IMG/VR virus record: IMGVR_UViG_3300024229_000994
Span: 1 to 58,877 of that record
DNA: 58,877 nt
Direction: 5' to 3' (one strand)
Origin: a virus
Below the pieces are notes generated by a model. It saw only the letters and a list, made by a program, of their open reading frames with translations. It searched no databases and was not told where the DNA came from. Numbering within the stretch: the first letter of the stretch is position 1; each line of letters starts with the position of its first letter. The position numbers and the translations under genes were made by a program. Below are positions 14,098 through 50,731 of this stretch, piece after piece.

Positions 14098-14317
14098 TAG
14101 CCTAGTTGATAATATATTAGAAGATTTCCGTGCACCTATAGATGTTCAACGCCCAGGTAAAGTTAAACCACGTGGTAAATTTGGTACAGTTAACCCTCAA
14201 TTAAATGTACCTCATAGTACGAAATCAGTTAGCGGATTTAAAGGTCAACCAGGCGGTAAGATGAATACGCTATTTATTAAGTTACCGAAGCGTAAAAAGA
14301 AATCTACCAAGAAGTAG
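14087..14317 (+). CDS. Small basic protein with capsid-targeting-like leader
   Basis: The 76-residue product begins MKFNSLVDNILEDF, with I-L-E at residues 10-12 matching the T4 gp21 cleavage rule (I/L-x-E). The mature part is Gly/Pro/Lys-rich, unstructured and ends KRKKKSTKK, which suggests DNA contact inside the head. The ATG at 14087 is chosen over an upstream frame extension because the late octamer lies 5 bases before it. It converges with and overlaps the lysozyme-like gene by 14 bases. Confidence 0.65.
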   Translation: MKFNSLVDNILEDFRAPIDVQRPGKVKPRGKFGTVNPQLNVPHSTKSVSGFKGQPGGKMNTLFIKLPKRKKKSTKK

Positions 14318-14855
14318 ATAACCATTTTGCAGCTGCCATTGTAGCTCCTAACGCATCATTCTTCTCTAGAATATTAGACCAAGCTTTCTCATCATAATCT
14401 TGTAATCTTTTTAATGCATCTTTACCAAACGCTTTATGAAATTTAGGTCCAAAATATTGGTGAGAATTTTTGACTAGACTCATAGCAGTTTTAGGTTCAA
14501 CTTGCCAGTAACTTCTAGCAGGGCCACCACCACTCTGCACTCTCGTACGGTAACCAGATTCTACAGCACCTGTTTTTGTTAAGATATCAATAAATTCTTG
14601 CTCTGAATGACCTTCATCACCGGCAAAAATCTTTGCAGCTACCTGTATTGCCATTTTAGCATCTGCGGGTGTTTCAATATCGGCTTTTAGTACTCTTGTA
14701 GCTCGAGCTTCTTTCTGAGGATCGTTACTAGTCTGATAATATTTCGACCAATCTTGTACGAAATCTCCGAATAGAGAGGATGTAGCTAATGCTCCCATCG
14801 CTAAAGCTTTACTCAACTTACCTTCTTCGATATAGTACTCTTTAAACGTCTGCAT
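14304..14855 (-). CDS. Lysozyme/transglycosylase-like protein with capsid-targeting-like leader
   Basis: The 183-residue product starts MQTFKEYYIEEGKL. Residues 1-11 resemble the T4 internal-protein leader (MKTYQEFIAE), with I-E-E at 9-11 as a possible gp21 cleavage site. Residues 88-175 resemble lysozyme-like glycan hydrolases: a GAVESGYRT block with a candidate catalytic Glu at 99, followed by an ARSYWQVEP block at 113-121. The gp5-like spike has no lysozyme domain, so this protein could instead be packaged in the head and delivered during infection. A perfect TATAAATA promoter lies 5 bases upstream. The enzyme assignment is moderate; the leader is clear. Confidence 0.6.
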   Translation of the reverse strand: MQTFKEYYIEEGKLSKALAMGALATSSLFGDFVQDWSKYYQTSNDPQKEARATRVLKADIETPADAKMAIQVAAKIFAGDEGHSEQEFIDILTKTGAVESGYRTRVQSGGGPARSYWQVEPKTAMSLVKNSHQYFGPKFHKAFGKDALKRLQDYDEKAWSNILEKNDALGATMAAAKWLSTSW

Positions 14856-25802: not shown

Positions 25803-26486
25803 ATGATAGTTTTTAACGAGGAAGAGCATACCTATATAGATACCGAAACAGGCAAGAAGCTTATATCTGCAACTACCTTGATTGGTAAGTATAAGCCGCG
25901 ATTTGATAAGATTGGTAATGCTACACGTGTTGCGAAAAGAGAAGGAGTGACTGTAGATTTCATACTCGAAGAATGGGAAGCAGAAAAGAATAGAGCTTGT
26001 GATTACGGTACACATGTGCATAAGGTAATGGAAGATTTTCTCGGTGAAGGTATTGAAGAGTCAGAATATGAACAGCTATACTCATCATATAAAAAATGGG
26101 AGCATATATTTAAAAAGTTTCCGGCACTCACATGTGAGATGAGACTTAATAATATTGATCTGAATATTGCCGGTACGGCGGATTTAGTATACGAGAATAA
26201 AGACTACTTTTATATCGGAGATTTTAAAACGAATAAAGCTTTTAGATTTTATAGTGAGTATAATGAGTTTTTTAAGAAACCAGTAGACCATCTAGGGGTA
26301 TGTGAATTTAATACATACTCATTGCAGCTCTCACTATATGCATATCTATACGAATTAAGCAGTGGAAAAAAATGCAGCGGTTTAGTTATCTTCTATAAAA
26401 ATAACGACGCTTGGTATCCAATTCGTTTAAACTATATGAAGAAGGAGATTATTGCTCTAATTGAAGATTACAATAATCCCAGTTAA
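25803..26486 (+). CDS. PD-(D/E)XK nuclease (RecB/Cas4-like)
   Basis: The 227-residue protein has the RecB-type nuclease set: His in THVHK (about 71-73), Glu in CEMRL (112), Asp in AGTADLVY (127), and GDFKTNK (139-145) with Asp 140 and Lys 142. Members degrade or trim DNA ends. With an early-type promoter it probably acts in recombination or host DNA breakdown. Its 3' end converges with and overlaps the superoxide dismutase gene by 38 bases. Confidence 0.8.
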   Translation: MIVFNEEEHTYIDTETGKKLISATTLIGKYKPRFDKIGNATRVAKREGVTVDFILEEWEAEKNRACDYGTHVHKVMEDFLGEGIEESEYEQLYSSYKKWEHIFKKFPALTCEMRLNNIDLNIAGTADLVYENKDYFYIGDFKTNKAFRFYSEYNEFFKKPVDHLGVCEFNTYSLQLSLYAYLYELSSGKKCSGLVIFYKNNDAWYPIRLNYMKKEIIALIEDYNNPS

Positions 26487-27069
26487 CAATTTTTAAGAAT
26501 TGCTTGATATACTTTTCTCGATCCGGTCCGTACTTCTTATAATATGCATGCTCCCATACATCAATTCCTAAGATAGGAGTACCTTGATCAAACATAAGCG
26601 GGTTATCTTGTTTGTCTGTCTGTACAATTTTTAATGTATTACCCCTCTTGACGAGCCATACCCACCCTGAACCGAAGTGTGATTTAGCTTGTTCTGTAAA
26701 TTCTTTATAGAAGCTCTCTACTGTTTTATACTTCTTTTCGATAGCATCTTTTATATTGCCTCTAATTGGATGTCTATTAGGCGTCATCATATTCCAGAAA
26801 AGTTGATGATTATAAGCTCCTCCTGCATTATTACGAACAGCGGCTTTTTTATTACCGGCCTTTTTAATTAATTCTTCTAAAGGAGGCTGTGATACACCTA
26901 CAGCATTATTTAATTTTTGTACATAACCCTTATAATGCTTATTATAGTGGAGCTTCATTGTCTCCTCATCAATATAAGGTTCTAACGCATTAAATGCGTA
27001 TGGTAGTTTTACTGGCTTATAACCGCCTACCTCTTCTAGAATTAAATCTGCTAACTTATCATAGTTCAT
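26449..27069 (-). CDS. sodA: Mn-type superoxide dismutase with capsid-targeting-like leader
   Basis: Residues 20-206 are a complete Fe/Mn superoxide dismutase, converting superoxide to hydrogen peroxide and oxygen. All metal ligands are present: His 41, His 88, Asp 170 and His 174 (DVWEHAYY). Gly 84 and Gln 154 match the Mn-type arrangement. Ordinary family members start close to the KLPYAF strand; here about 19 extra residues precede it (MNYDKLADLILEEVGGYKP), with L-I-L-E-E at 9-13, fitting the I/L-x-E cleavage rule of T4 capsid leaders. It is the third gene of a late operon after Nudix and a small basic protein, with ATGA overlaps. Packaging in the head and injection is inferred. Confidence 0.93.
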   Translation of the reverse strand: MNYDKLADLILEEVGGYKPVKLPYAFNALEPYIDEETMKLHYNKHYKGYVQKLNNAVGVSQPPLEELIKKAGNKKAAVRNNAGGAYNHQLFWNMMTPNRHPIRGNIKDAIEKKYKTVESFYKEFTEQAKSHFGSGWVWLVKRGNTLKIVQTDKQDNPLMFDQGTPILGIDVWEHAYYKKYGPDREKYIKQFLKIVNWDYCNLQLEQ

Positions 27070-29762: not shown

Positions 29763-30509
29763 CTAGACTTTAAGGGCCATATCCCAGATTACTAATTGTA
29801 GTCTCGGGCTAAACTTAAGTGTATGTTTTTTACATAACTCAGCTACCATTGCAGATTTAGCAGTGTGCTCTTCCCTACTACCACAGCAAGGCATTAACCA
29901 AACTCTTTCACGGCTAACTAAACCATTATCAATATATTTTTCAAATAGTTCCTTCTCATCATCTTCATTATTAATAACAAATTTAAAGCAAGAACCTAAT
30001 TCATTATGATACTTTAACACATCAGGTTTATACCTACGCTTTTCCGGATCGCCGTTATTACTCATCTTCGGAGATACAGTAAACGTCGCTCTATATATTG
30101 AGGACCATTCCGGTAAAGGCATTAAAGATCCATTTGTTTCGAAGTCAATACGCGGGCAAAAACTGAACCTTTCCATAAAGGATACTAACCATTCTATAAG
30201 TCGCTTCTGTTGCAGCAACGGTTCTCCGCCGGTAATCTTAAGAATTGCACCGTCCTTAAGATTCTTAACGAACCCGTTATTCTCATAGAAATTATTGAGC
30301 TCATCATATGTATATCGGTTCTTCACAGACCATGAAACAAACGAATCGCATCCATGCGGTGAATCTTCGGATGCAAAGCCTTGACATGTAAGGTTACACA
30401 TAGCAAGTCTCATAAAAACAGAAGGTTCACCAATGAATTTACCTTCACCTTCTACAGTATAAAAGACGTGATCATCGCTAAGAGATAGCGTTTTATTTAG
30501 ATTAGACAT
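29763..30509 (-). CDS. queE: 7-carboxy-7-deazaguanine synthase-like radical SAM enzyme
   Basis: The 248-residue protein matches QueE, which converts carboxy-tetrahydropterin to 7-carboxy-7-deazaguanine (CDG). It has a VFYTVEGEGKFIGEPSVFMR opening, a radical-SAM cluster segment, GGEP at 94-97 and a late SPK-type motif (VSPKM). The cluster cysteines are unusual: Cys 38, Cys 42 and Cys 54, i.e. CX3CX11C with a loop before the last GCDS, instead of CX3CX2C. Other QueE enzymes with enlarged cluster loops exist. A TTGATA-16-TATAAT promoter ends 6 bases before the ATG. It supplies the base inserted by the DpdA-like enzyme. Confidence 0.85.
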   Translation of the reverse strand: MSNLNKTLSLSDDHVFYTVEGEGKFIGEPSVFMRLAMCNLTCQGFASEDSPHGCDSFVSWSVKNRYTYDELNNFYENNGFVKNLKDGAILKITGGEPLLQQKRLIEWLVSFMERFSFCPRIDFETNGSLMPLPEWSSIYRATFTVSPKMSNNGDPEKRRYKPDVLKYHNELGSCFKFVINNEDDEKELFEKYIDNGLVSRERVWLMPCCGSREEHTAKSAMVAELCKKHTLKFSPRLQLVIWDMALKV

Positions 30510-30515
30510 ACATTA

Positions 30516-30543
30516 ATTATATATATGTTCCGTCGCGTATCAA
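30516..30543 (-). promoter_or_regulatory. Sigma70-like promoter of queE
   Basis: TTGATA-16-TATAAT on the minus strand, 6 bases before the ATG at 30509. Confidence 0.7.
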
Positions 30544-30578
30544 GCAGTAATATTATATTTATTCAAAAACATACAATT

Positions 30579-30590
30579 TTACACGTGTAA
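30579..30590. promoter_or_regulatory. 12-bp perfect palindrome between queE and phoH
   Basis: TTACACGTGTAA reads the same on both strands and lies between the divergent queE and phoH genes, a position suited to an operator. Confidence 0.3.
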
Positions 30591-30623
30591 TTTATCATGT
30601 ATATACGTATTAAATATATGTAT

Positions 30624-31397
30624 ATGTCAACAAAAACTAGTACTCGAAAGAGTACAAAAGCCGCGAAAAGACAACCCGTAAATAAATCAGAACTTGTTTT
30701 TGATAATAGAGTCGCGATGCCAGGTGATGACTGGGATCTAGATTTTAAAATCAAACAAGATTATGATCTAACTGAGAGGCAACAAGCCTTCTTTAATACA
30801 GCATTACAGCAGCAAACGCGAATGTGTATTGTAGATGGACCAGCTGGTACAGCTAAAACATATATAGCAGTATTAGCAGCATTAAAGTTGCTTCATAATA
30901 GACAGATAGATAATATTGTATATATTAGATCAATTGTGGAGAGTGCCTCCAGAAGTATGGGAGCTCTACCAGGTGAATTGGAAGATAAATTCGCACCATG
31001 GTCTATGCCTCTTATTGATAAGTTAGACGAGATACTAGTAGGTAATACTAGTAACAATCTAATGTCTAAGGGGTATATTAGATGTATACCAGTTAATTTT
31101 ACAAGAGGTCTAACATTTAAGAATGCTTGCGTTATTATTGACGAAGCTCAAAATATGACTAATTCTGAATTAACTACTATTTTAACTCGATTCGGTCAAG
31201 ATAGTAAATATCTAGTCGTCGGTGACACGTATCAAGCAGATATCGGTGAAAAGAGTGGGTTCGCTGGAATATATAAAGCTTTCGATGCGGATATCTGCAG
31301 TGAAAATAATATCAATACCTTTAAATTTGACGGTGACGATATTGTTCGAAGTGAAATCTTAAAGTTTATCGTCGAGAGACTGCACACCATTAAGTAG
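30624..31397 (+). CDS. phoH: PhoH-like P-loop ATPase
   Basis: The protein (257 residues from ATG 30624; 266 from 30597) has a Lys/Thr-rich N-terminal tail and a PhoH ATPase domain with Walker A GPAGTAKT, an IRSIVE block and Walker B VIIDEAQN. PhoH proteins are common in marine phages. Proposed roles include RNA handling and phosphate-stress response, not settled. Start choice is uncertain because ATG codons at 30597, 30618 and 30624 are all in frame; a TTAAATA late-like box lies 7 bases before 30624. It converges with the small gene ending at 31359, overlapping by 39 bases. Confidence 0.85.
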   Translation: MSTKTSTRKSTKAAKRQPVNKSELVFDNRVAMPGDDWDLDFKIKQDYDLTERQQAFFNTALQQQTRMCIVDGPAGTAKTYIAVLAALKLLHNRQIDNIVYIRSIVESASRSMGALPGELEDKFAPWSMPLIDKLDEILVGNTSNNLMSKGYIRCIPVNFTRGLTFKNACVIIDEAQNMTNSELTTILTRFGQDSKYLVVGDTYQADIGEKSGFAGIYKAFDADICSENNINTFKFDGDDIVRSEILKFIVERLHTIK

Positions 31398-31631
31398 CTC
31401 TTTCATCGCTTGCTCAAGCCCGACCGGTTGAATTTCCTGTACCGGTTCGGGCTTTTGCTCATTCTTAATTTCAGTTGGTGGAGTTACTGCATGTTGCATT
31501 TTTGCAAATACATTATTTTCTAACTCGACTGATTTTGGATCTCTCTCTCGTGTTGTAGGTATACCACCGGTAGCTCCATTAGAGTGAATAGGTGCTTTGG
31601 ATATGCCTTGGTATATATCACCTAAATTCAT
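31359..31631 (-). CDS. Small hypothetical protein downstream of queD
   Basis: The 90-residue protein is Pro/Glu/Asn-rich and probably disordered with a C-terminal helix (LEQAMKELLNGVQ). It starts 3 bases after the queD stop, so it is probably co-transcribed with queD, and overlaps phoH at its 3' end. No function recognised. Confidence 0.5.
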   Translation of the reverse strand: MNLGDIYQGISKAPIHSNGATGGIPTTRERDPKSVELENNVFAKMQHAVTPPTEIKNEQKPEPVQEIQPVGLEQAMKELLNGVQSLDDKL

Positions 31632-31633
31632 TA

Positions 31634-32245
31634 TTAATTACCCCATGATGTACCGCCAAATAAATTACCCATACCAGTAGTAACTTTACTATTAAGTGGT
31701 GGAATTTTTGGTTTATCTTGAGGAATTTCAGTAACTGTATTTTCTACAACTGCAGTTACATTTTCTTTCTCTGTATTATCTTGAATCTGTAGCGTAATAT
31801 CACCGAGACTCTCTTCATAAATTGCACTATTCCCTTCATGCTCCCAGACCTCTACTTTGATAACTCTTACACGGTTATTTGTTTGTTCGGTTACAAATTT
31901 ATTTGTTGTTTCATAAACCCATTCAGCAGTTCTTTCAATACCGACGCCTTTCTCAGCAATGCGAAGATCAATCATACCCTTATCAGACATCAACTTAAAT
32001 GTATCCAATTCAGGATCATCAGCAGCTACTACAGTTGTATGATCGAATTGCTTTTCTAAAAGTTTTTTAATTTCTCTACAACCACCGAAATCATAAATCC
32101 AATTCTTATCATCTAATTGATCTGCTGTAAACCATAACTTACATTGCAATCTATAACCATGAATTAACTTGCAATGACTATCTGCTCTCCATTGACGAAA
32201 AGCTGTACTACCCATAGGAATAATCTTCGTTGAAATATATCTCAT
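31634..32245 (-). CDS. queD: 6-carboxytetrahydropterin synthase-like protein, divergent
   Basis: The first 150 residues match the QueD/6-pyruvoyl-tetrahydropterin synthase fold, which makes carboxy-tetrahydropterin for preQ0 synthesis. The active-site Cys 25 is in SHCKLIHGY (23-31), FDHTT at 67-71 holds the catalytic Asp-His pair, and VWEHE holds the substrate Glu. The usual HGH zinc pair reads HGY and the first zinc His of FSAAH is not in its normal place, so metal binding differs from E. coli. About 50 extra disordered residues end the protein. Promoter TTGATT-16-CATAAT ends 6 bases before the ATG. Confidence 0.8.
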   Translation of the reverse strand: MRYISTKIIPMGSTAFRQWRADSHCKLIHGYRLQCKLWFTADQLDDKNWIYDFGGCREIKKLLEKQFDHTTVVAADDPELDTFKLMSDKGMIDLRIAEKGVGIERTAEWVYETTNKFVTEQTNNRVRVIKVEVWEHEGNSAIYEESLGDITLQIQDNTEKENVTAVVENTVTEIPQDKPKIPPLNSKVTTGMGNLFGGTSWGN

Positions 32246-32251
32246 ATTATT

Positions 32252-32279
32252 ATTATGAAGTATATATCATGATAATCAA
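32252..32279 (-). promoter_or_regulatory. Sigma70-like promoter of queD
   Basis: TTGATT-16-CATAAT on the minus strand, 6 bases before the ATG at 32245. Confidence 0.6.
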
Positions 32280-32359
32280 CTTTTTTTATGATAAGAGTTG
32301 ATTTATATTTTTAACCTATTAAAATACCTTTAGGTGGAAGGGAGGAGGAGATCATTCAG

Positions 32360-33835
32360 TTATTTTTTTACCTCTGATGTAGGTGAAGGGTTAGCTTTTG
32401 CTTCAGCTTCTTTAATTTCAGCTTCAGTTGCTGCAACACCTTTTTTGTAGTTAATTAAATATTGCTTTGTTGTTGGTAAATCTTGCAATATTTGAAATTT
32501 CATGTAACCTGACTTTTCATCGGGTCTCATGAGAATATGCTTACCGTCAGTTAAAGGCTTTACATCTGTTTTATTAATAGGGTATTGACCGTCACTATAT
32601 TTAACACCCATTAATTGTTTATTTTCACTGCTCAATGTATATAACTTTTCTTGACCGTTCCATTGAAAATTTACACCTTCTGTAGTTATAGCATTAATAG
32701 GTTGGTTTTCATTATCATATGCATATATAATACCGGTATTACTTTCCGCGGATTTAAATTCATTATCTTTTGCTTGTAACAAGTATGTGAGGTATTTTAT
32801 GTCGCGATCCTTTAGTATATTAGCAACATCTGGTGTTAACGGTTTTAGCGTATACTGAATACCTTTTTCACCGAAACTAGTTCTACCTGTCAATTCGAAT
32901 AATGCGTTATCGATTGTCAGTCTTGAATCTGGAGTTACTACCGGGTCTTCTGCTGGTTCTGGATCTTCTGCTGGTTCTTCAAATTCAATCCTATCACCGG
33001 GGTATATATCCTTGAGGCCCTGTACAATTTTTTTAGCTTTGTCTTCACCGAGAGATTTAATCCAATCACCTTTATATGATTTTTGAAAGTTAAATTCCGG
33101 TTCTTCAGCATCTTCTACGCTCGATCCGGATAATCCCTTCTTAGGGTCATGACCTTTAAAGGTAAACGGTATATCAGGGTATGTTTCTTTAACAGCTTTC
33201 AGGAAACTAGGTACACCTTTTGATATCCATTGCACGCGCCTATCAATTACCTTCTTGCCTGTATCCGGGTCAGTTAATTTCATTTCGGTATCTAATTTTA
33301 AAACATCTTTAAGTATATCCCAAACACGTACAGCTTTTGATTTACCGTCCTTATTACCAGCCATTTGCTCCATATTCTTGAAGCTACCCTTTTCATTTCT
33401 ATCTAACGAGGCTTGAGCTTCATTTATTTTTTTTAAAAAATGTGCTGGTAGTACTGCCTCATTTGCTTCTGAAGCTTCCGGAGCCTCTTCAGAAGCAGCA
33501 GATGCATCTTGACCATATGCATTTATTTTTTTTATAATATCATCACCGAGTTTAATTTTGTTAAATCCACCTTTACCAAAATATCCCATTTTATTAGTAC
33601 TTTTATCAAGTTGTTTATCTAATATTTTTTGTAGAGCATCTCCGATATCCCATTTGCCTCTTGCAACTTCAGCGCCTTTCTTAATAAAGTTAGTGGATTT
33701 TTGAGCTGCACTTGCAACTTTATTTAAGATCCCCCCTTTCTTAACAGGTTTATTTGCATTTGCAGCTAATTGACCTGTATCGGTAGTGTTAGATTCAGGC
33801 GTTGCTTCCTGTATTAATTTTAAAAAATTACTCAT
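32360..33835 (-). CDS. Large capsid-cargo or head-associated protein with leader
   Basis: The 491-residue protein starts MSNFLKLIQEATPESN, with I-Q-E|A at residues 8-11 fitting the gp21-type cleavage rule. The rest is Lys/Glu/Ala-rich, with low-complexity acidic segments near residues 112-126 and 300-315 and a beta-rich C-terminal third. No catalytic motif seen. An AATAAATA late box lies 9 bases upstream. Likely an internal head protein. Confidence 0.6.
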   Translation of the reverse strand: MSNFLKLIQEATPESNTTDTGQLAANANKPVKKGGILNKVASAAQKSTNFIKKGAEVARGKWDIGDALQKILDKQLDKSTNKMGYFGKGGFNKIKLGDDIIKKINAYGQDASAASEEAPEASEANEAVLPAHFLKKINEAQASLDRNEKGSFKNMEQMAGNKDGKSKAVRVWDILKDVLKLDTEMKLTDPDTGKKVIDRRVQWISKGVPSFLKAVKETYPDIPFTFKGHDPKKGLSGSSVEDAEEPEFNFQKSYKGDWIKSLGEDKAKKIVQGLKDIYPGDRIEFEEPAEDPEPAEDPVVTPDSRLTIDNALFELTGRTSFGEKGIQYTLKPLTPDVANILKDRDIKYLTYLLQAKDNEFKSAESNTGIIYAYDNENQPINAITTEGVNFQWNGQEKLYTLSSENKQLMGVKYSDGQYPINKTDVKPLTDGKHILMRPDEKSGYMKFQILQDLPTTKQYLINYKKGVAATEAEIKEAEAKANPSPTSEVKK

Positions 33836-33844
33836 TATTAATAT

Positions 33845-33852
33845 TATTTATT
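33845..33852 (-). promoter_or_regulatory. Late-type promoter AATAAATA
   Basis: Nine bases upstream of the ATG at 33835, directly next to the divergent early-type promoter of folE2. Confidence 0.45.
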
Positions 33853-33878
33853 GATTTTATATTTATATACTATATAAT
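33851..33878 (+). promoter_or_regulatory. Sigma70-like promoter of folE2
   Basis: TTGATT-16-TATAAT, ending 6 bases before the ATG at 33885. Confidence 0.7.
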
Positions 33879-33884
33879 TAGTGT

Positions 33885-34928
33885 ATGTCAGATAAAAGTA
33901 AAAATTATGAATGGTTAGGTGAAGATGATGAACTTACTGGAGAAAAGGACGTTATTGCAAAAGAAATTATGGGTGAAGAGTTTAGTAAAGGCTACTTTCC
34001 TCCTATTAGAGTATATGATGATAATGTCAATGCAGATAAAGAATACATTTCTTCATTACCTGACCTTCAGAACGGCCCTTCTAGTTTAATTCAAGGTGCA
34101 CCTGTACCTATTCAACAAGTAGGTATCCATAACTTTAAACTACCGTTAACTTATAAGAAGAGAGATGGTAAGACTATTGAGTTAGAGACGAGCGTTACTG
34201 GCAGCGTTAGTCTCGAAGCTCATAAGAAGGGCATTAATATGTCTCGTATCATGAGAAGCTTCTATGACCATAAAGATGAAGTATTTAGTATGGGTAAGAT
34301 TAGAGATGTTCTCGAGACATATAGGAATAATCTTAAGAGCTTCGACTCTCGTATTATGCTTAAGATTTCATATCCTATTAAGCAACAGAGTCTACGTAGT
34401 GGTTTAGAAGGCTTCCAGTATTATGACGTAGTATTTGAAGGCGATCTAACTAAAGAAGGTGAATTTAAAAAGTATATTCACTTTGATTTCGTTTATTCAT
34501 CGGCATGCCCTTGTAGTTTTGAATTAAGTGAGCATGCTGAAAAGTATCGTAATAGAGCTACAGTGCCTCATAGTCAACGAAGTGTTGCTCGAGTTAGTGT
34601 GAAGTTTGATGATATGCTCTGGGTCGAGGATCTCCAGGAATTATGCTTAGCTGCTCTTCAAACCGAAACTCAAGTAATGGTCAAGAGAGAAGACGAGCAG
34701 GCGTTTGCTGAAAAGAACGGTGCTTATCTTAAGTTCGTAGAGGATGCAGTTAGACTACTCTTCGAAAAGCTTAATAATGAATCTCGTATTAAAGACTTTA
34801 AGATTGTAGCTTCGCATAACGAAAGCTTGCATAGTCATAATGCTGTATCAGTTATTGTAAAGGGTGTAGAAGGTGGCTTCTCAGCTGGAGTAGCTAGAGA
34901 TGTATTCGAATCAACTGGATTACGGTAG
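33885..34928 (+). CDS. folE2: GTP cyclohydrolase IB
   Basis: The 347-residue protein is a FolE2/GCYH-IB, which turns GTP into dihydroneopterin triphosphate, the first step of both folate and 7-deazaguanine synthesis. Hallmarks are SLEAHKKGINMSR (109-121), SSACPCS with Cys 208 and Cys 210 (metal/active-site Cys) and ESLHSHNA (313-320). It is unrelated in sequence to FolE (IA) and works with several metals. It has an early-type promoter and is followed by a hairpin terminator. With QueD, QueE and the DpdA-like protein it feeds DNA modification. Confidence 0.92.
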   Translation: MSDKSKNYEWLGEDDELTGEKDVIAKEIMGEEFSKGYFPPIRVYDDNVNADKEYISSLPDLQNGPSSLIQGAPVPIQQVGIHNFKLPLTYKKRDGKTIELETSVTGSVSLEAHKKGINMSRIMRSFYDHKDEVFSMGKIRDVLETYRNNLKSFDSRIMLKISYPIKQQSLRSGLEGFQYYDVVFEGDLTKEGEFKKYIHFDFVYSSACPCSFELSEHAEKYRNRATVPHSQRSVARVSVKFDDMLWVEDLQELCLAALQTETQVMVKREDEQAFAEKNGAYLKFVEDAVRLLFEKLNNESRIKDFKIVASHNESLHSHNAVSVIVKGVEGGFSAGVARDVFESTGLR

Positions 34929-43368: not shown

Positions 43369-43376
43369 TATTTATT
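43369..43376 (-). promoter_or_regulatory. T4-late-type promoter AATAAATA
   Basis: Exactly 5 bases upstream of the ATG at 43363; it overlaps the end of the upstream gene by 2 bases. Confidence 0.55.
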
Positions 43377-43653
43377 ATGATTTACTTTTTTTCTTCCAAC
43401 TGACTCGTTTAGAGCTCTTCTTTTTATACATTTTACCTTTTATCTTCTTGCAAGCAGCTTTAGTAGGTCTACATGCAGGGTAACTACCACCGGATTTTTT
43501 AGATTTTCTACCGCAAGGACCTCCTGTTTTGCAGTTTATCCATCCGCTAAACTTTTTACCAGTTTTAGGATCAGTACCTCCGCGTTTAAACCATTTATGT
43601 AAGCTATCGCTTGCTTCAGTAAGATAATTATCAACTAGATCGTCGAATTTCAT
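43375..43653 (-). CDS. DUF5872-like basic Cys-rich protein with capsid-targeting-like leader
   Basis: The 92-residue protein starts MKFDDLVDNYLTEASDS, with L-T-E|A at residues 11-14. The rest holds a RGGTDPKTGKKFSGWINC block (24-41) and CxxGGPCG / PxCRPT / CKK cysteine spacing as in DUF5872, seen in marine phages and some giant viruses. The C-terminus is a Lys/Ser run. A metal-binding, DNA-compacting head protein is inferred. Coupled by ATGA to the upstream gene. Confidence 0.65.
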   Translation of the reverse strand: MKFDDLVDNYLTEASDSLHKWFKRGGTDPKTGKKFSGWINCKTGGPCGRKSKKSGGSYPACRPTKAACKKIKGKMYKKKSSKRVSWKKKSKS

Positions 43654-43910
43654 TTCTTTTTCCAGATTTTACCTTTACGGCATCTAACAATCGCTCCTGA
43701 TTTATAAGCTGAAGTCTTCTTACCATAAACACTATCAGCTTTTCTCTTACAGCGATCCTGTGCATCTTCGCTACTAACTTTACCGCGAGCTTTTGTCTTT
43801 GATTGCTCTTTCTTTTTGTCTTTTTCTATACGTGTACCGGTGTAAGAAGATTTACCTGCACCGCCTTTTCTAACTTTAGTTTGCTCAAAAAAATTAATGA
43901 ATGTATCCAT
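43650..43910 (-). CDS. Small basic head-type protein with leader-like N-terminus
   Basis: The 86-residue protein begins MDTFINFFEQTKVRKGG (possible F-F-E cut) and is extremely Lys/Arg-rich, with two Cys in DRCKRKADSVYG and VRCRKGKIWKKK. The DRCKRKADSVYG block is also found in small marine-phage proteins of unknown function. It has an AATAAATA promoter 5 bases upstream and is followed by the DUF5872-like gene. Confidence 0.6.
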   Translation of the reverse strand: MDTFINFFEQTKVRKGGAGKSSYTGTRIEKDKKKEQSKTKARGKVSSEDAQDRCKRKADSVYGKKTSAYKSGAIVRCRKGKIWKKK

Positions 43911-43915
43911 ATTAG

Positions 43916-43923
43916 TATTTATT
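43916..43923 (-). promoter_or_regulatory. T4-late-type promoter AATAAATA
   Basis: Exactly 5 bases upstream of the ATG at 43910. Confidence 0.6.
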
Positions 43924-44803
43924 AATTATCTACTAAGATAACATTATATGATGTTGAAACTGGTACCCCGGTTGCAGTATCATATGCTCTTACTTCAATA
44001 TCAGTCTTTTCTAATGCCTGTAAAGGTACCTTGTAATCTTTAATCGAAAAATTATTTAGAAACATTATATCCTTAGTTCTCATAATAGGTCCGTCATTAG
44101 GTTCAGATAACATTAAGAAAGCCTGAACACCGGAATTATAGACACTCGACCCTACAGACCATTGAGTTATATAACCTGTTTTACCAGCTGGTATAGTGTA
44201 TACACTGGTTTGAGATTGACCGAACCCTTCTTTATTAACACTTGTACCTTTTGTACCGATTGATATAACAGTCGTGCTACCAGCATTTATATCGATATGC
44301 CCTTCATTAGTACCAGTTGAACCAGCTGTTTTAACTAAAGCTCTATATATTCTTAAAAATTCGTTTGTCGACGCTGATCCGCTACTCGTACCATTAGTTG
44401 AAATGACCTCCGTTACAGTGTTATAATTCGAATCTAACCCTTGGATCTCAATAGTTCTCGCACCGGTACCGGTAACCGTATCACCAGAATCATCGCTTAT
44501 AGCTGATACGGTAGACGCTACAGTTAAGTATTCGTATATACCGCCAGTTTCCCAGATTGTTTCTATATCAGCTCCAACAGATAGATTAGCGCCAAACTTT
44601 TCGATATAATCTTGCTGCCCCGTTCCGCTACCAATCCCAGTATTTAAAGGGTCAACTTGCTGTACTAAAACGGCTGATTTATTGAAAACTCCTTGACCTA
44701 AACCACCTGTTACCGCAGGGTATCGAGAATCATTTTCAATCTCAACATATTTCATATAGTTGAGAGTGTTCTCCGGGGTTCTTATATCTGTTTTAATACT
44801 CAT
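43922..44803 (-). CDS. Virion structural protein
   Basis: The 293-residue protein is Ser/Thr/Gly-rich and beta-rich with no enzymatic motif (for example TVTGTGARTIEIQGLDSNYN). The VYTIPAGKTGYITQWSVG block near 198-215 resembles virion decoration or neck proteins found in marine phages. It lies 6 bases after a small basic protein in a long late operon. Confidence 0.6.
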   Translation of the reverse strand: MSIKTDIRTPENTLNYMKYVEIENDSRYPAVTGGLGQGVFNKSAVLVQQVDPLNTGIGSGTGQQDYIEKFGANLSVGADIETIWETGGIYEYLTVASTVSAISDDSGDTVTGTGARTIEIQGLDSNYNTVTEVISTNGTSSGSASTNEFLRIYRALVKTAGSTGTNEGHIDINAGSTTVISIGTKGTSVNKEGFGQSQTSVYTIPAGKTGYITQWSVGSSVYNSGVQAFLMLSEPNDGPIMRTKDIMFLNNFSIKDYKVPLQALEKTDIEVRAYDTATGVPVSTSYNVILVDN

Positions 44804-44809
44804 AAAAAA

Positions 44810-45130
44810 TTACCACTTTCTGCAAGACCAGTATCTCGCTTTTGTTTTAGGGCCAGGGTTATCGCAATTATGTCTCGCTCTAAAAGATTTACGAGCTTTC
44901 GGATTACTCTTTCTAATTTTCATCGTTTTTTCACCTTTACGTTTAGCAGATGTACCGCCATGTCCAAAGTTGACTTTTTTTACATTACCAGTTTTAGGGT
45001 CTTTTACGTATACTTTAAATTTTTTAACGTCACCTCTTGTTGGCTTGTTAAGAGTTACTTTTCTACCTCTATATTCAGCATCTTCTTCAAATGCTTCCAT
45101 TAAATAAGTATATAATTTATCGAAGGTCAT
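44810..45130 (-). CDS. Basic Cys/Trp-containing protein with capsid-targeting-like leader
   Basis: The 106-residue protein begins MTFDKLYTYLMEAFEED, with L-M-E|A at residues 10-13. The mature part contains VKKVNFGHGG and KARKSFRARHNCDNPG, ending RYWSCRKW. This C-terminal block is widespread in T4-like marine phages with unknown function. A late-type box is 5 bases upstream. Likely DNA-associated head protein. Confidence 0.65.
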   Translation of the reverse strand: MTFDKLYTYLMEAFEEDAEYRGRKVTLNKPTRGDVKKFKVYVKDPKTGNVKKVNFGHGGTSAKRKGEKTMKIRKSNPKARKSFRARHNCDNPGPKTKARYWSCRKW

Positions 45131-45135
45131 TTAAT

Positions 45136-45143
45136 TATTTAAT
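45136..45143 (-). promoter_or_regulatory. Late-type promoter ATTAAATA
   Basis: Exactly 5 bases before the ATG at 45130; overlaps the plus-strand box of the gene at 45154. Confidence 0.55.
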
Positions 45144-45148
45144 AAATA
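45141..45148 (+). promoter_or_regulatory. T4-late-type promoter AATAAATA
   Basis: Exactly 5 bases before the ATG at 45154. Confidence 0.6.
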
Positions 45149-45153
45149 TTATT

Positions 45154-45693
45154 ATGGATAGTGAAACAAATCTAATATTCGAGCAATATAAACAAGTTAA
45201 TGAGAATATTGGCTTAGGACCGAACGGTATGTCTACCGTAACAATTACAGTAGGATCTAATACTAATCACCCACCGAGACGTCAACCGGGCGGTACAACA
45301 TTTAGTGCATTCAGTGATGAAGAACACGCTGATGTAAAGAAAGAGGAAGAAGCAGTATATATACAAGCAGGTGATGCATCAGATGATGATTGTGGTTGCA
45401 GTGATTGTAATGGCGATCATGACGGTGAAATAGACATGGCGAGGGCTGAATTACTTAAAGCTGCTGAATATGCTACGAAACTATTCAACCATCTTCAAGA
45501 TGTCGATAACTTAGAAGGTTGGACAGCTAGTAAAATTACAAAAGCTTCCGATTATCTATCATCCGTTTACCATGCTTTAGAGTATGATGCTTTAGATGCA
45601 AACGTTGAAGATGAAGAAGTTGATGATGAGCTTGAAATCGACGATTACGATGCTGCAAAGACAGCTAAAGATACAGGTTTCGCAGGAGCTTAA
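45154..45693 (+). CDS. Acidic protein with leader-like N-terminus
   Basis: The product (179 residues from ATG 45154) starts MDSETNLIFEQYKQVNE, with I-F-E|Q at residues 8-11. The interior is acidic, with a Cys-rich DDDCGCSDCNGDHDGE loop (about 80-95) that could bind a metal, a helix and an Asp/Glu-rich C-terminus. The upstream extension to 45091 is rejected because the late box lies 5 bases before 45154. Likely a head or scaffold-associated protein. Confidence 0.6.
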   Translation: MDSETNLIFEQYKQVNENIGLGPNGMSTVTITVGSNTNHPPRRQPGGTTFSAFSDEEHADVKKEEEAVYIQAGDASDDDCGCSDCNGDHDGEIDMARAELLKAAEYATKLFNHLQDVDNLEGWTASKITKASDYLSSVYHALEYDALDANVEDEEVDDELEIDDYDAAKTAKDTGFAGA

Positions 45694-45697
45694 GATA

Positions 45698-47608
45698 TTA
45701 GCTTAATATTTGTTTAATTGTAGCTTTATCTTCAGTAGATAATACCTCAGGGGTAAAATATTCGATAGCTTTATCGATATCTGAAGCAATTAACTCTCTT
45801 GTCATTGTACCTGATATACCTTCTGCTTGTAGAGGTATCTTTACAACTCTAACAAGAGGATATTTATCAATATTCTTATCAAAGTACGAATATCTTTTTA
45901 CATCATCATCCTTATCCCCAGCACCGACAATTATATTAACATCTTTATTTTCATCTGCATATTCATACACGGATCTAACAGGAGTTACATTAGCTATAAC
46001 AACTTCAACGGGTTTATCGAGATATTTCGCGTAGATCTCCCATATTTGCTTTGATTGATCGGCAGTAATACCATCCCTATCCTTCTTTCCAATGAATATT
46101 ACTCCTTTGTCAGCATCTTGTAAGATGTAATCGAAAGAATGGAAATGTCCTTTTGTAGGTGGCTTGTATCCTCCTGGATATAAAGCAACAGTCGGTTGTG
46201 TCTCTTCATCTTCACCCATAATTTTTGTATATAGACTACTGAAAGAGTCGTTTATAGGAGCAGATTTTGAGGAAAATCTACCCTTACCATAAAAATCGCC
46301 ACGGGTAGGAGGGTTAGTTATATAAGACTCTTGATCTTCTTTAGTTGCTGGTGAAGTTGGCTTACCAGTACCGAAATTAGCGCGACTAAACTCGCCTCTA
46401 TCAACTAATTTCGTAATTTGAGCACCGTCATCAGTAACTTTCGAAAGAGCAAACCCTTCTGGAGCTGTCGTTTGCCATTCCCCTGGTGCTTCTTCTAGAT
46501 ATGTACCTAATAAGTCATTCTGCGTGATTTCGTTAAAGATTTTAATAAGGTTGTTCTTAAGATTTGCAATAATTTTAGTAATTTCAAATGCATTCTTGAT
46601 AGAAGGTTTAAGTTTTTTAAGAGCTGATAGAGTATTCTTCATCTGCTCTGTCTTTTTCGCTTTACCTTTCTCGCTCTTTAGTTTTTCGATATCCTTTACA
46701 AACTTACCTGATATCCAATTAACAAACTCTTCAGATGAAATAGCTGTATCTTCTAGAAATCTACCGGCTCTTATTTCTGAGTTAATATATGTCTTTAGTA
46801 AAGCGGTATAATCATCTAGAGAACTAAAATCTACTTTATCAGCTAATTTTAAAACTTGTTTTTTCTTCTTTTGAACGTCTTTAAGCAGTAATTTACTGAA
46901 TGATGACTTAGCATTTTTAGGTTTATTAGCTAATACATTAAAGACAAATACGGTACTTGATGGAGAAAACTCTTCCGGAGAAGACGTATATTTCTTAACC
47001 TTTAAAATACCATTTTGAATCATATATTCAATATGAATAGCTACCCCAATCTTTGCTTTATTGATCTCATCACCGTACGGGCTATTTTCTGTAACAGCAT
47101 ACTTAATTGTATTAGGAGTAAATGTAAGAAATCGATTTTCATTCTTAACTCCGTCAATAGTCTGAGGAGTTTCAATTTGCTTCATCTGCGGATCAAACAT
47201 ATAATCCATTTGATAAATACCTTTAAGGTTTAAAGACGGTAAATACCGTAATGCTAACTTAAGCTTATCAGCTAAACCACCAGTACCGTGATTGTTGATA
47301 ATATCTTGCTCAGTATAGTTAATTTTTGGGTTTTTAGCAAACGCTGACTTACTAGCTACAAAAAATTTATTATTAGTATCGACACCTGCGACAATAGCAG
47401 GTGCACCGTCAAATTTAGTCGAAATTTTATAATCAGACTCATCAACAAAGTAAGAAATAGATGATTCTATTTGATTAATAGCTTCTATTACCCCTTGTTT
47501 GCCTTTATTAAGTATATTCTCTTCTAGATGGTCGATATGCTTTACAGCTCCGTCGATAGCATCGAAGAATTCTAAAATTATGCTGTGATGTTGTTTGAAT
47601 GTTTTCAT
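45698..47608 (-). CDS. Two-domain nucleotidyltransferase-like protein (DUF6267-like plus cytidylyltransferase-like) with leader
   Basis: The 636-residue protein starts MKTFKQHHSIILEFFD, nearly matching T4 MKTYQEF, with I-L-E at residues 11-13. Residues 58-230 match a phage family (DUF6267-like) containing STKFDGAPAI; K65-x-D67-G68 looks like motif I of ATP-dependent ligases and RNA-capping enzymes. Residues about 470-630 form a cytidylyltransferase/NMNAT-like domain with PGGYKPPTKGHF and ISGTMTR, the HxGH- and ISSTxxR-type motifs. A head-packaged enzyme acting on nucleotides or nucleic-acid ends is possible. It follows the nuclease gene by a one-base overlap. Confidence 0.65.
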   Translation of the reverse strand: MKTFKQHHSIILEFFDAIDGAVKHIDHLEENILNKGKQGVIEAINQIESSISYFVDESDYKISTKFDGAPAIVAGVDTNNKFFVASKSAFAKNPKINYTEQDIINNHGTGGLADKLKLALRYLPSLNLKGIYQMDYMFDPQMKQIETPQTIDGVKNENRFLTFTPNTIKYAVTENSPYGDEINKAKIGVAIHIEYMIQNGILKVKKYTSSPEEFSPSSTVFVFNVLANKPKNAKSSFSKLLLKDVQKKKKQVLKLADKVDFSSLDDYTALLKTYINSEIRAGRFLEDTAISSEEFVNWISGKFVKDIEKLKSEKGKAKKTEQMKNTLSALKKLKPSIKNAFEITKIIANLKNNLIKIFNEITQNDLLGTYLEEAPGEWQTTAPEGFALSKVTDDGAQITKLVDRGEFSRANFGTGKPTSPATKEDQESYITNPPTRGDFYGKGRFSSKSAPINDSFSSLYTKIMGEDEETQPTVALYPGGYKPPTKGHFHSFDYILQDADKGVIFIGKKDRDGITADQSKQIWEIYAKYLDKPVEVVIANVTPVRSVYEYADENKDVNIIVGAGDKDDDVKRYSYFDKNIDKYPLVRVVKIPLQAEGISGTMTRELIASDIDKAIEYFTPEVLSTEDKATIKQILS

Positions 47609-48639
47609 TAAATTGTACCTAGAGATGGATCGAGGTCGAGGGTTGTAATTGCCCCAGCTTTGATTATATTTTTATCAATTAGAGTTGATATTTGATCTGT
47701 ACTAAAAATAATATAACGGCTAAAATATTTATTTCTACTTGTATTAACAAAAACAAAATAGTCGACTCCTTCGTGGTTAGCGTAGTTATCGAAGTATATT
47801 TTTGTTAAAGCCTTTCTTACCTCTCTAGAGTCATTGAGATTGATATTATCTAAAATATTGATAATAGTACTATGTGGGTATTCTACCTTCGCAAAAGTTT
47901 TTAACGCGGCGAATATATCTTCACTATTAGCTCCCGGCTCATTAGCTAAATTAGCGATGAGAGTATCGATTCGTTTATCAGATTTATCGTACTGCGTAGC
48001 TAATTGACCTAAAGGTGTTTTATTAAAGTTACTCGCAGCTCTATCTCGCTTACCTAAACGAGCATTAGTACCCTTAGCTTCAAGATATTTACCGTTCCAA
48101 TCTAGATCTCCTTTACTAGCACTCATACTAACATCATCAAAGATAGTAGCTAGAGCAATCTCCCCTCTACCGACTCCTCTACCGCTCTCCGTACCGATGA
48201 GGTTTATTAAATCGCGGACAGTCTCTGGTTTCAACTTAGTTGTCTCAACTACTTTTTCAATTAACATACCAGTATTGCCAATTGTTGAAAGCGCTACCGG
48301 TGTTTCGATATACTGCGCGTACGTTGCAACATCATTATGTTTTGAAAGTATTTGTATAATGAATTTTCTAACATCACCTTCGCTGATAGTTGTTTCTGTT
48401 AAGTTTTGTTTATCGAGGTAATTATATATTTTTTCAGCATACGGTTTAACGCTCAAATGCTTTTTAATAAAATTAACATCCGTTTCCTGGTCTAATAAAT
48501 TTTTACTATCAAGGTCTCTAATAAGCTCAATCAGCTCTTCACCTTGTGGTGTTTCACATAGTTGCTGTCGACGTAGCTTTGGCACTGCCTTACCTGCAGA
48601 TTCCTGAAGATAGATTTGGTCTAATGATTTCCAACTCAT
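47608..48639 (-). CDS. PD-(D/E)XK nuclease-like protein with capsid-targeting-like leader
   Basis: The 343-residue protein starts MSWKSLDQIYLQESAG, with L-Q-E|S at residues 11-14. A restriction-endonuclease-like core is visible: Glu 160 in GRGE, Asp 178 or 180 in GDLDW, and Glu 187 / Lys 189 in YLEAKG. A packaged nuclease could attack host or rival DNA or trim the injected genome end. It overlaps the downstream nucleotidyltransferase by 1 base and the upstream gene by 4. Confidence 0.65.
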   Translation of the reverse strand: MSWKSLDQIYLQESAGKAVPKLRRQQLCETPQGEELIELIRDLDSKNLLDQETDVNFIKKHLSVKPYAEKIYNYLDKQNLTETTISEGDVRKFIIQILSKHNDVATYAQYIETPVALSTIGNTGMLIEKVVETTKLKPETVRDLINLIGTESGRGVGRGEIALATIFDDVSMSASKGDLDWNGKYLEAKGTNARLGKRDRAASNFNKTPLGQLATQYDKSDKRIDTLIANLANEPGANSEDIFAALKTFAKVEYPHSTIINILDNINLNDSREVRKALTKIYFDNYANHEGVDYFVFVNTSRNKYFSRYIIFSTDQISTLIDKNIIKAGAITTLDLDPSLGTI

Positions 48640-48944
48640 AACTCAATATCTATATCTGTAGAATAACTTTTCATTAGTTGAAGGATACTACCCAGTACTT
48701 GCTTGGCATTATCTTCATTAACATCAGCAAGATCATTGATATTATCAATGTCTTCTGGATCCAGATTCATTACCATAGCTTTTTTAAGAAGTCTAACATA
48801 CATTACTTCACTTTCCGGTGAAAGAGCTACTGTTACTTCTTCAGCCGGAGCATCTTCTGCTGGTGTTTCAGCACCTGGAGGTGGTGGAGCTTCATCAGCT
48901 TCATTAATTAAATTAAGATCGTATATTTTTTTAAGAAATTTCAT
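48636..48944 (-). CDS. Acidic Pro-rich protein with capsid-targeting-like leader
   Basis: The 102-residue protein starts MKFLKKIYDLNLINEADEAP, with I-N-E|A at residues 13-16. A Pro/Ala/Glu linker (about 18-38) leads to two or three helices. Starts 2 bases after the upstream stop. Small head or scaffold component is likely. Confidence 0.6.
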   Translation of the reverse strand: MKFLKKIYDLNLINEADEAPPPPGAETPAEDAPAEEVTVALSPESEVMYVRLLKKAMVMNLDPEDIDNINDLADVNEDNAKQVLGSILQLMKSYSTDIDIEL

Positions 48945-48945
48945 A

Positions 48946-49743
48946 TTATTTAGCTGTCTTTAATAGGTCTTTATACCCTTGTTCGAGTTTTTTTGTTACT
49001 GCGTCATATGCTGGTATAGCTTTCGCGACGGCTTTTGCTCTTTTATCTAATGATGCTTTTGCTGCCTGCGCTTTTGTACCTAGTAGCTTACCTGCTAAAC
49101 CTTTAGCGCCTGAACTTGCAGTAGCTGCTAGATCACTGAGACCTTTCTCAACAGTATTCATATCTACTTCTTGATCTTCAATATGTGTTTCTTCATCACT
49201 AAAGAATCCATCTAATGAACGGATACCGCTTTCTTGATCTTCTATTTCGATTTCTTCAATATAACTTTTTGGTTCAACTGGAATAAATTTATCACCTTCA
49301 ATACGTCCATATCTGCCATCTTTATAAAATTCTACAGCATCTCTAAATCTTGTTAAAAAATCACTTCTTGGTCTAAAACCGTTTTCATCTTTAAAATCAT
49401 CAGAATAATCACCAGCTAAATCTGGATCGATTAAGTTTACCGGGCCATCAATTCCGAATCTCTCTATAGCTTTATCTCTTATAGCATCATATTTACGCAA
49501 TACTGCTAAGTGTGCTTGTTTATCTTTCTTTTGTATAGCATCAAAAATATCATCAGTAAGAGCTTCCATTTGATCAGAATATTCACGTGCATCGGGTCTA
49601 TCAAAAGGGCTTTCCGGTTTATCTTCTTTATTATTAAACGGTGAATCTTCGAAACCTTTTTTAAGAAGCTTTTCTATTTGGTCTGCTTTTATATCTCTTT
49701 GCTCAGTTAAGATTTTATTTGCTAATGTAGTAAAGTTATCCAT
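48946..49743 (-). CDS. Head-associated protein with capsid-targeting-like leader
   Basis: The 265-residue protein starts MDNFTTLANKILTEQRDI, with L-T-E|Q at residues 12-15. It is charged and helical, with an Ala/Lys/Gly-rich section near 205-250 and no enzyme motif. It heads a same-strand late run (49743 to 45698) of four genes, all with leaders, so the run may be a cargo or scaffold operon. Confidence 0.6.
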   Translation of the reverse strand: MDNFTTLANKILTEQRDIKADQIEKLLKKGFEDSPFNNKEDKPESPFDRPDAREYSDQMEALTDDIFDAIQKKDKQAHLAVLRKYDAIRDKAIERFGIDGPVNLIDPDLAGDYSDDFKDENGFRPRSDFLTRFRDAVEFYKDGRYGRIEGDKFIPVEPKSYIEEIEIEDQESGIRSLDGFFSDEETHIEDQEVDMNTVEKGLSDLAATASSGAKGLAGKLLGTKAQAAKASLDKRAKAVAKAIPAYDAVTKKLEQGYKDLLKTAK

Positions 49744-50320: not shown

Positions 50321-50731
50321 TCAGTGTTCCAAAAAATTCTTAGGTGGTTTACCTATTCTACAGTTGATTATACCATTATAATAGTCTTCACTTAACAGTA
50401 CATCTTTATCAAACTGCATCTTTGATTCATAATAACCTAGTTCATATTTATTTCTACAGAATCTTAGTATTTTAAATAAAAATCTATCCTTACCGTGTGT
50501 GGCTATATCGATATTGAGCCTATCACTTGAACCTGTATAGGTCTTCCAGTCACTTTCCACATAATCAATACGCTTCCTCTTCTTACCTTTAAGAGGTGCT
50601 CGCTTAATCTTTTTAACCATCTGCTTTCTACCGATATATTTCTTATCGTTTATTAAATTGGTAATTTCGTATATAAATCCGAAAGCGTCCTCTGGTATTG
50701 CTTCATAAACTTTCCAATGACCTGTATCCAT
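50321..50731 (-). CDS. GIY-YIG-like endonuclease (Seg-like)
   Basis: The 136-residue protein has a GFIYEITN strand (18-25) and KYIGRKQ (31-37), which match the GIY and YIG strands followed by the catalytic Arg. A basic stretch and DWKTYTGSSD follow, as in T4 Seg-type and related small endonucleases. Homing or recombination role possible. The conserved C-terminal Glu is not certain. The AGTAAATA late-type box is 5 bases upstream. Confidence 0.65.
   Translation of the reverse strand: MDTGHWKVYEAIPEDAFGFIYEITNLINDKKYIGRKQMVKKIKRAPLKGKKRKRIDYVESDWKTYTGSSDRLNIDIATHGKDRFLFKILRFCRNKYELGYYESKMQFDKDVLLSEDYYNGIINCRIGKPPKNFLEH

What the first reader, a model, noticed from the sequence alone, without database searches (positions are those of the whole stretch)
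45698..47608. Capsid-leader protein joining a ligase-motif domain to a cytidylyltransferase-like domain
Seen: K-x-D-G motif (STKFDGAPAI, residues 62-71) in the DUF6267-like part, and PTKGHF plus ISGTMTR motifs in the C-terminal part of the same chain; N-terminus MKTFKQ close to T4 MKTYQE. Known: K-x-D-G is motif I of nucleotidyltransferases that form enzyme-NMP intermediates, and HxGH/ISSTxxR enzymes transfer nucleotides (NMNAT, CCT). Inference: an injected enzyme that repairs, caps or tags nucleic acids or restores NAD, possibly countering host NAD-depleting defences.
Basis: partly seen in the sequence, partly recalled or inferred. Interest (0 to 1): 0.6.

Follow-up and report, generated by a model that had tools for sequence, protein, structure and literature searches.

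The report
Phage-head enzyme with two nucleotide-transferring domains
A marine T4-like phage encodes one protein, probably carried inside the virus head, that joins a domain bearing the catalytic motifs of RNA/DNA ligases to a second nucleotide-transferring domain; it suggests an activity for a large family that databases list only as 'unknown function'.

Summary
The ORF is real: 636 aa on the MINUS strand. Residues 23-416 are Pfam DUF6267 (1.4e-79); residues ~469-636 have the HIGH-type nucleotidyltransferase fold (PPAT/NMNAT). K65-x-D-G is invariant in 84 diverse relatives, as are ligase-like K87 and E384-G385...K400. A motif I-Ia-IV pattern hits 110/142 DUF6267, 27/33 T4 Rnl1 and 9/9 T4 DNA ligase ORFs, and 0/1422 others. 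The ten best PDB fold matches of DUF6267 are all ligases, but none is significant (E>=0.23): superfamily membership is likely, not shown. In one relative an intein sits exactly after KFDG. The NTase partner is fused, separate with its own leader, absent, or replaced by another NTase; phage S-PM2 already has such a fusion. The capsid leader is plausible: seven of eight genes of the local cluster have leader-like N-termini, and in cyanophage S-CREM2 five of six genes fitting the experimental T4 leader rule are virion proteins. Best reading: a capsid-packaged dual nucleotidyltransferase, a ligase-like adenylyltransferase with a hitch-hiking PPAT/NMNAT-like enzyme. Substrates are unknown. NAD rescue is untested; no NAD-phosphoribosyltransferase partner was found.

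The parts
45698..47608 (-). CDS, 636 aa: leader + DUF6267 + linker + HIGH-type nucleotidyltransferase
47570..47608 (-). residues 1-13 MKTFKQHHSIILE, candidate capsid-targeting leader with h-x-E processing site
   Evidence: conserved in the clade; resembles the experimentally defined T4 CTS (PMC9026906); low pLDDT
46361..47542 (-). DUF6267 domain, residues 23-416, candidate covalent nucleotidyltransferase
   Evidence: PF19782 1.4e-79; AlphaFold pTM 0.75
47405..47416 (-). motif I K65-F-D-G, candidate nucleotidylated lysine
   Evidence: 84/84 invariant; end of predicted strand 61-65
47348..47365 (-). FFVASK, candidate motif Ia (K87 invariant)
47195..47212 (-). QMDYMF, candidate motif III (Q133 and D135 invariant)
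   Evidence: lies on predicted strand 131-138
46445..46459 (-). EGFAL, candidate motif IV (E384, G385 invariant)
   Evidence: aligns with Rnl1 EGYVA in hhalign, not significant
46397..46414 (-). TKLVDR, candidate motif V (K400 invariant)
46523..46903 (-). all-helical insertion (residues 236-362) between the N-terminal motifs and motif IV
   Evidence: predicted structure
46205..46360 (-). linker, residues 417-468, low confidence; partner domains are exchanged here (DNA homology with L011 stops at 46308)
45701..46204 (-). HIGH-type nucleotidyltransferase domain, residues 469-636
   Evidence: PDB fold hits PPAT E 6e-5, prob 1.0; NMNAT prob 1.0
46145..46174 (-). GGYKPPTKGH, (H/T)xGH nucleotide-binding motif
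45797..45817 (-). ISGTMTR, ISSTxxR-type motif
47608..48639 (-). upstream gene overlapping by one base; leader MSWKSLDQIYLQE; GDLDWNGKYLEAK suggests a PD-(D/E)xK nuclease (by eye only)
   Evidence: no family hit
48636..48944 (-). neighbour with leader-like N-terminus MKFLKKIYDLNLINEA
48946..49743 (-). neighbour with leader-like N-terminus MDNFTTLANKILTEQ
44810..45130 (-). neighbour with leader-like N-terminus MTFDKLYTYLMEA (phrog_7595)
43375..43910 (-). two small basic proteins with leader-like N-termini (43375-43653, 43650-43910)

Best explanation
A capsid-packaged (probably injected) bifunctional nucleotidyltransferase of a T4-like phage. The N-terminal leader targets the chain into the prohead core and is removed by the gp21-type protease. 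The DUF6267 domain is a divergent covalent nucleotidyltransferase of the ligase/capping superfamily: Lys65 takes an AMP (from ATP or NAD+) and passes it to a phosphate end, most likely of RNA or DNA, for end repair in the first minutes of infection. The C-terminal domain is a separate HIGH-type NTase that adenylylates a small phosphorylated metabolite (NMN- or phosphopantetheine-like). It is an exchangeable partner: elsewhere it is a separate gene with its own leader, so fusion may mainly let two enzymes share one leader. Shown here: ORF, domains, motif invariance, HIGH fold, modular fusion. Inferred: packaging of this protein, covalent chemistry, substrates and benefit.
For: DUF6267 1.4e-79. 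K65/D67/G68/K87/D135/E384/G385/K400 invariant in 84 relatives. Motif I-Ia-IV pattern: DUF6267 110/142, Rnl1 27/33, T4 gp30 9/9, other ORFs 0/1422. The ten best PDB fold neighbours of DUF6267 are all ligases or adenylation domains, and the best viral match outside the family is an RNA ligase, prob 0.60. C-domain = PPAT/NMNAT fold, prob 1.0. Intein (TIGR01445, 34.3 bits against cut-off 24.5) placed exactly after KFDG in L058, as inteins often sit in active sites (general knowledge). Different NTase partners fused to the same module: type A (window), type B (L010-L026), S-PM2 type; unfused neighbours in cyanophages. Standalone type-A NTases have T4-like leaders such as MKSFKLFFEQE. Seven of eight genes of the local cluster have leader-like N-termini against 8 of 62 elsewhere, p=4e-5. 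In S-CREM2 5 of 6 genes fitting the T4 CTS rule are virion proteins, p=0.003. Cytidylyltransferases were found in the virions of S-SM1, S-SZBM1 and S-CREM2 (PMC3037559, PMC9146016, PMC10665884). S77 prohead protease in 4 of 5 large relatives.
Against: No significant fold match of DUF6267 to any ligase (best E 0.23, TM about 0.2); no sequence-profile link. DUF6267 itself was not listed in the one virion proteome checked where the gene is present (S-SZBM1, PMC9146016), though that copy lacks a leader. The window protein's leader does not fit the strict T4 rule (H at position 7, E at 13 not 10). The motif pattern was written with DUF6267 and ligases in view. No phosphate-end-processing partner was identified.
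Confidence: 0.55

Rival explanations
1. NAD+ rescue: the C-terminal domain is an NMNAT that rebuilds NAD+ early in infection against NAD-depleting defences, and DUF6267 is a helper or unrelated cargo.
For: TxGH plus ISGTxxR motifs and NMNAT among the fold hits; authors of cyanophage virion proteomes propose an NAD role.
Against: The top fold and profile matches are PPAT rather than NMNAT; no NAPRTase/Nampt gene in the window or in five large relatives, two of them ~185 kb; DUF6267 occurs in many phages without this NTase.
Confidence: 0.15
2. DUF6267 is a non-enzymatic internal head protein; KxDG, SK and EGxV are fold-related conserved residues and the resemblance to ligases is superficial.
For: Fold match insignificant; profile comparison fails; large helical insertion; location beside head-protein genes in cyanophages.
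Against: Charged and polar residues in ligase order are absolutely invariant; the pattern occurs in 0 of 1422 unrelated ORFs; intein at KFDG; repeated fusion to enzymes.
Confidence: 0.2
3. An ordinary DNA-replication or RNA-repair enzyme made during infection and not packaged; the leader-like N-terminus is coincidence.
For: Cyanophage copies often lack the leader and sit next to uvsX, gp41 and mazG genes.
Against: Leader conserved across the window's clade and T4-like in 20 of 74 distant members; the whole local cluster is leader-rich; the rule predicts virion presence in S-CREM2.
Confidence: 0.25

Closest known systems
Pfam DUF6267 (PF19782) / T4-GC_71 / phrog_455
   Same: full-length homologue at 1.4e-79; same invariant residues
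   Different: the family has no assigned function; most isolate members are not fused and many lack the leader
Synechococcus phage S-PM2 S-PM2d138 (CFW42325.1, 591 aa)
   Same: the same order DUF6267 then HIGH-type NTase in one chain
   Different: a different NTase type (GRFNPPTTGH, MSASKVR) and no leader; annotated only as hypothetical protein
Cyanophage virion cytidylyltransferases/NMNAT-like proteins (T4-GC_190; S-SM1, S-SZBM1, S-CREM2, S-SCSM1)
   Same: HIGH-type NTase, several with T4-like leaders, found in virions by mass spectrometry
   Different: separate genes; sequence type distinct from the window's C-domain
T4 RNA ligase 1 (Rnl1) and T4 DNA ligase gp30
   Same: order and spacing of motifs I, Ia, IV, V
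   Different: no detectable overall similarity; DUF6267 has a ~125-residue helical insertion before motif IV and an invariant N-terminal HxxHxE
T4 internal proteins (IPI-III, Alt) with capsid-targeting sequence
   Same: short N-terminal leader ending in h-x-E; cargo delivered with the DNA
   Different: here the cargo is a dual nucleotidyltransferase; the leader is 13 residues with H at position 7

Membership tests
Pfam DUF6267 | match above the gathering score over the whole model | tested here: met
   268.6 bits against cut-off 27, profile 2-376 of 376
Covalent nucleotidyltransferase (ligase/capping) superfamily | motif I K-x-D-G invariant | tested here: met
   84/84
Covalent nucleotidyltransferase (ligase/capping) superfamily | motifs Ia, IV and V in order | tested here: met
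   shared pattern only with Rnl1 and gp30, 0/1422 others
Covalent nucleotidyltransferase (ligase/capping) superfamily | adenylation-domain fold of the superfamily | tested here: inconclusive
   top 10 PDB hits all of this superfamily but E>=0.23, prob<=0.35
Covalent nucleotidyltransferase (ligase/capping) superfamily | significant profile similarity to a known member | tested here: not met
   hhalign prob about 1% or less against Rnl1, Rnl2, gp30; no ligase family among the 25 Pfam families most often matched by the 84 members at E<=10. Not strictly a defining feature: the superfamily is known for very low sequence similarity
Covalent nucleotidyltransferase (ligase/capping) superfamily | enzyme-NMP intermediate | not testable with these tools
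   needs biochemistry
HIGH-type nucleotidyltransferase (PPAT/NMNAT/cytidylyltransferase) | (H/T)xGH and ISSTxxR-type motifs | tested here: met
   PTKGH 484-488, ISGTMTR 598-604
HIGH-type nucleotidyltransferase (PPAT/NMNAT/cytidylyltransferase) | Rossmann-like NTase fold | tested here: met
   5ts2 PPAT E 6.4e-5, prob 1.0; NMNAT1 prob 1.0
NMNAT | NMNAT-specific family score | tested here: not met
   no NCBIfam NMNAT equivalog near its cut-off; PPAT model scores higher
NAD+ reconstitution pathway (NARP1/NARP2) | phosphoribosyltransferase-like partner (Namat or NadV) | tested here: not met
   PF04095 absent from the window and five large relatives, two ~185 kb, completeness unknown
T4 capsid-targeted internal proteins | CTS: targeting residues 4 and 7, processing residues 8 and 10 | tested here: inconclusive
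   window leader keeps F4 but has H7 and E13; other family members fit strictly
T4 capsid-targeted internal proteins | present in virion, leader removed | not testable with these tools
   needs virion mass spectrometry

The most novel reading that the evidence does not exclude
DUF6267 is a new family of virion-packaged ligases that uses NAD+ as AMP donor (the invariant N-terminal HxxHxE contacting the NMN half), and the fused NMNAT-like domain turns the released NMN back into NAD+: a self-recycling NAD+-dependent ligase delivered with the phage genome.
Probability: 0.07. Interest if true: 0.9.

Novelty: new variant of a known kind. Interest (0 to 1): 0.55.

Why it matters
DUF6267 had at least 596 confirmed IMG/VR hits in one capped scan and matches in 466 isolate records, mostly cyanophages, yet has no assigned function and no paper in the searched library uses the name. 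Reading it as a ligase-like nucleotidyltransferase delivered in the head gives a concrete, cheap test (auto-adenylylation, K65A) and fits a wider pattern: T4-type leaders seem to mark a set of packaged enzymes in marine phages and could be used to predict injected cargo from sequence.

Tried and rejected
Sequence-profile search of DUF6267 against PDB, Pfam scan of 84 members at E<=10 and hhalign against Rnl1, Rnl2 and gp30, also with the helical insertion removed and with column-shuffled controls: no significant link, although the best local alignment with Rnl1 is motif IV-V. Fold search of the full-length model was swamped by the C-domain, hence the second model. NAD-salvage partner sought and not found. 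Other ligases in relatives: G001 (185 kb) has none of four families tested, G002 has Rnl1- and Rnl2-type ligases, so no simple replacement story. The upstream gene as a conserved nuclease partner was dropped: it belongs to several unrelated families across phages and none has a significant Pfam hit. A tight leader count on part of the S-CREM2 genome was superseded by the whole-genome test.

Full report
OBSERVATION. The plus strand of 45698-47608 is not open; the gene is on the minus strand, 636 aa. Motif positions: STKFDGAPAI 63-72, PTKGHF 484-489, ISGTMTR 598-604. The record is a 58,877-base virus record with T4-type genes such as gp43-like polymerase, UvsW-like helicase, SbcC-like exonuclease subunit and PhoH. 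DUF6267 covers residues 23-416 (1.4e-79).

RELATIVES AND MODULARITY. Close relatives in IMG/VR show four states: same NTase fused (type A, window), a different NTase fused (type B, GRFHPFHKGH), type-A NTase as a separate downstream ORF with its own leader (MKTFREYFEDQE, MKSFKLFFEQE), or DUF6267 alone. Window and L011 share 96.2% identical DNA only from 12 bases upstream of the start codon to residue ~434 (47620-46308); the flanks are 70-91% identical in pieces or unrelated, and the partner domain differs. So the DUF6267 module is exchanged as a unit. In cyanophages DUF6267 (T4-GC_71) usually lies directly before T4-GC_190 cytidylyltransferase or near it. S-PM2 (LN828717) has both in one 591-aa chain with a third NTase type. 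The fusion as such is therefore not new, and it seems to have arisen more than once.

DUF6267 AS A LIGASE-LIKE ENZYME. Over 84 sequences (A4) K65, D67, G68, P70, K87, Q133, D135, E384, G385 and K400 are invariant. In the AlphaFold model (pTM 0.75) K65 ends a strand, D135 is on strand 131-138, E384 precedes strand 385-392 and K400 is on strand 395-402; an all-helical stretch 236-362 separates the two halves. A pattern made from motifs I, Ia and IV, with or without V, matches 109-110 of 142 DUF6267 ORFs, 27 of 33 Rnl1 orthologues, 9 of 9 gp30 orthologues and none of 1422 other ORFs in the sequences held; Rnl2, whose motif I is different, is missed as expected. Foldseek against PDB puts ten ligase-superfamily chains in ranks 1-10, but with E>=0.23 and probability <=0.35; the best viral match outside the family is an RNA ligase, probability 0.60. 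Profile methods find nothing. In L058 the gene is split right after KFDG by an intein (TIGR01445 above cut-off; closest solved relative the NrdJ-1 intein) with a separate ORF between the halves, the arrangement described as 'fractured genes' (Dassa et al. 2009, seen here only as a citation in PMC3653736). I judge superfamily membership about 75% likely; it is not shown.

C-TERMINAL DOMAIN. Fold search gives PPAT (5ts2, E 6.4e-5, prob 1.0) and NMNAT (prob 1.0); sequence models prefer PPAT weakly and none reaches an equivalog cut-off. The substrate cannot be named.

CAPSID LEADER. Work on T4 IPIII places targeting at leader residues 4 and 7 and processing at 8 and 10 (PMC9026906). I applied that rule to all 219 S-CREM2 genes: 6 match and 5 of them are among the 52 proteins of the published virion proteome (PMC10665884), including SAM hydrolase, APH-like kinase and cytidylyltransferase (Fisher p 0.003). 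Cytidylyltransferase is also in the S-SM1 and S-SZBM1 virions (PMC3037559, PMC9146016). Authors caution that co-purification is possible. In the window, 7 of 8 minus-strand genes from 43375 to 49743 have leader-like N-termini against 8 of 62 elsewhere (p 4e-5; the pattern was chosen after looking). The window protein's own leader is a longer variant, conserved in its clade. In S-SZBM1 the leaderless DUF6267 is not listed in the virion while its neighbours _139 and _140 are (the number _141 for DUF6267 is inferred from gene order). Large relatives encode the S77 prohead protease.

FUNCTION. Most likely the chain is delivered in the head; the DUF6267 part forms Lys65-NMP and acts on nucleic-acid ends, and the NTase part works on a metabolite. 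That the NTase elsewhere has its own leader, and lacks one when fused, suggests that fusion shares one leader between two cargoes. NAD rescue is a weaker rival: no Nampt-type partner was found. Every step beyond domains, motifs and modularity is inference.

NOVELTY. The fusion architecture (S-PM2) and virion NTases are on record; the ligase reading of DUF6267, the leader-sharing idea and the DUF6267 module swap were not found in the papers searched (no paper names DUF6267). Most papers of subscription journals are not in that library, so an earlier mention cannot be excluded.

Noticed in passing
L058:3-1213: Intein inserted exactly after K-F-D-G of a DUF6267 gene, with N- and C-halves in separate ORFs and a 240-aa ORF between them (fractured-gene arrangement); nearest solved intein is NrdJ-1.
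   Followed up: partly
window 46308-47620 against L011:4989-6301: 96.2% identical DNA confined to the DUF6267 module between less similar or unrelated flanks: recent recombination of one domain-sized block.
   Followed up: partly
window 14304-14855 (-) and 32360-33835 (-): Two genes away from the cluster also have T4-like leaders (MQTFKEYYIEEG, MSNFLKLIQEA): candidate packaged proteins of unknown function.
   Followed up: no
window 29763-34928: GTP cyclohydrolase FolE2 close to QueE-like and QueD-like ORFs (by eye): possible 7-deazaguanine DNA modification pathway.
   Followed up: no
window 26449-27069 (-): Fe/Mn superoxide dismutase encoded by the phage.
   Followed up: no
window 47608-48639 (-): Leader-bearing upstream protein with GDLDWNGKYLEAK, a PD-(D/E)xK-like stretch; no family hit.
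   Followed up: partly
L214:7704-10313 (S-CREM2 gp12): The annotated Cas9-like virion protein carries RFASFMAEA near its N-terminus, resembling the T4 leader; its start may be misannotated.
   Followed up: no
L124:4986-6765 and L216:2486-4261: The S-PM2 reference (NC_006820) splits the 591-aa DUF6267-NTase gene into two CDS, whereas LN828717 has one; the records disagree about the reading frame here.
   Followed up: partly
window 50321-50731 (-): PHROG label 'NAD synthetase' (phrog_447) falls on a SegE-type GIY-YIG endonuclease; the label is probably wrong.
   Followed up: no
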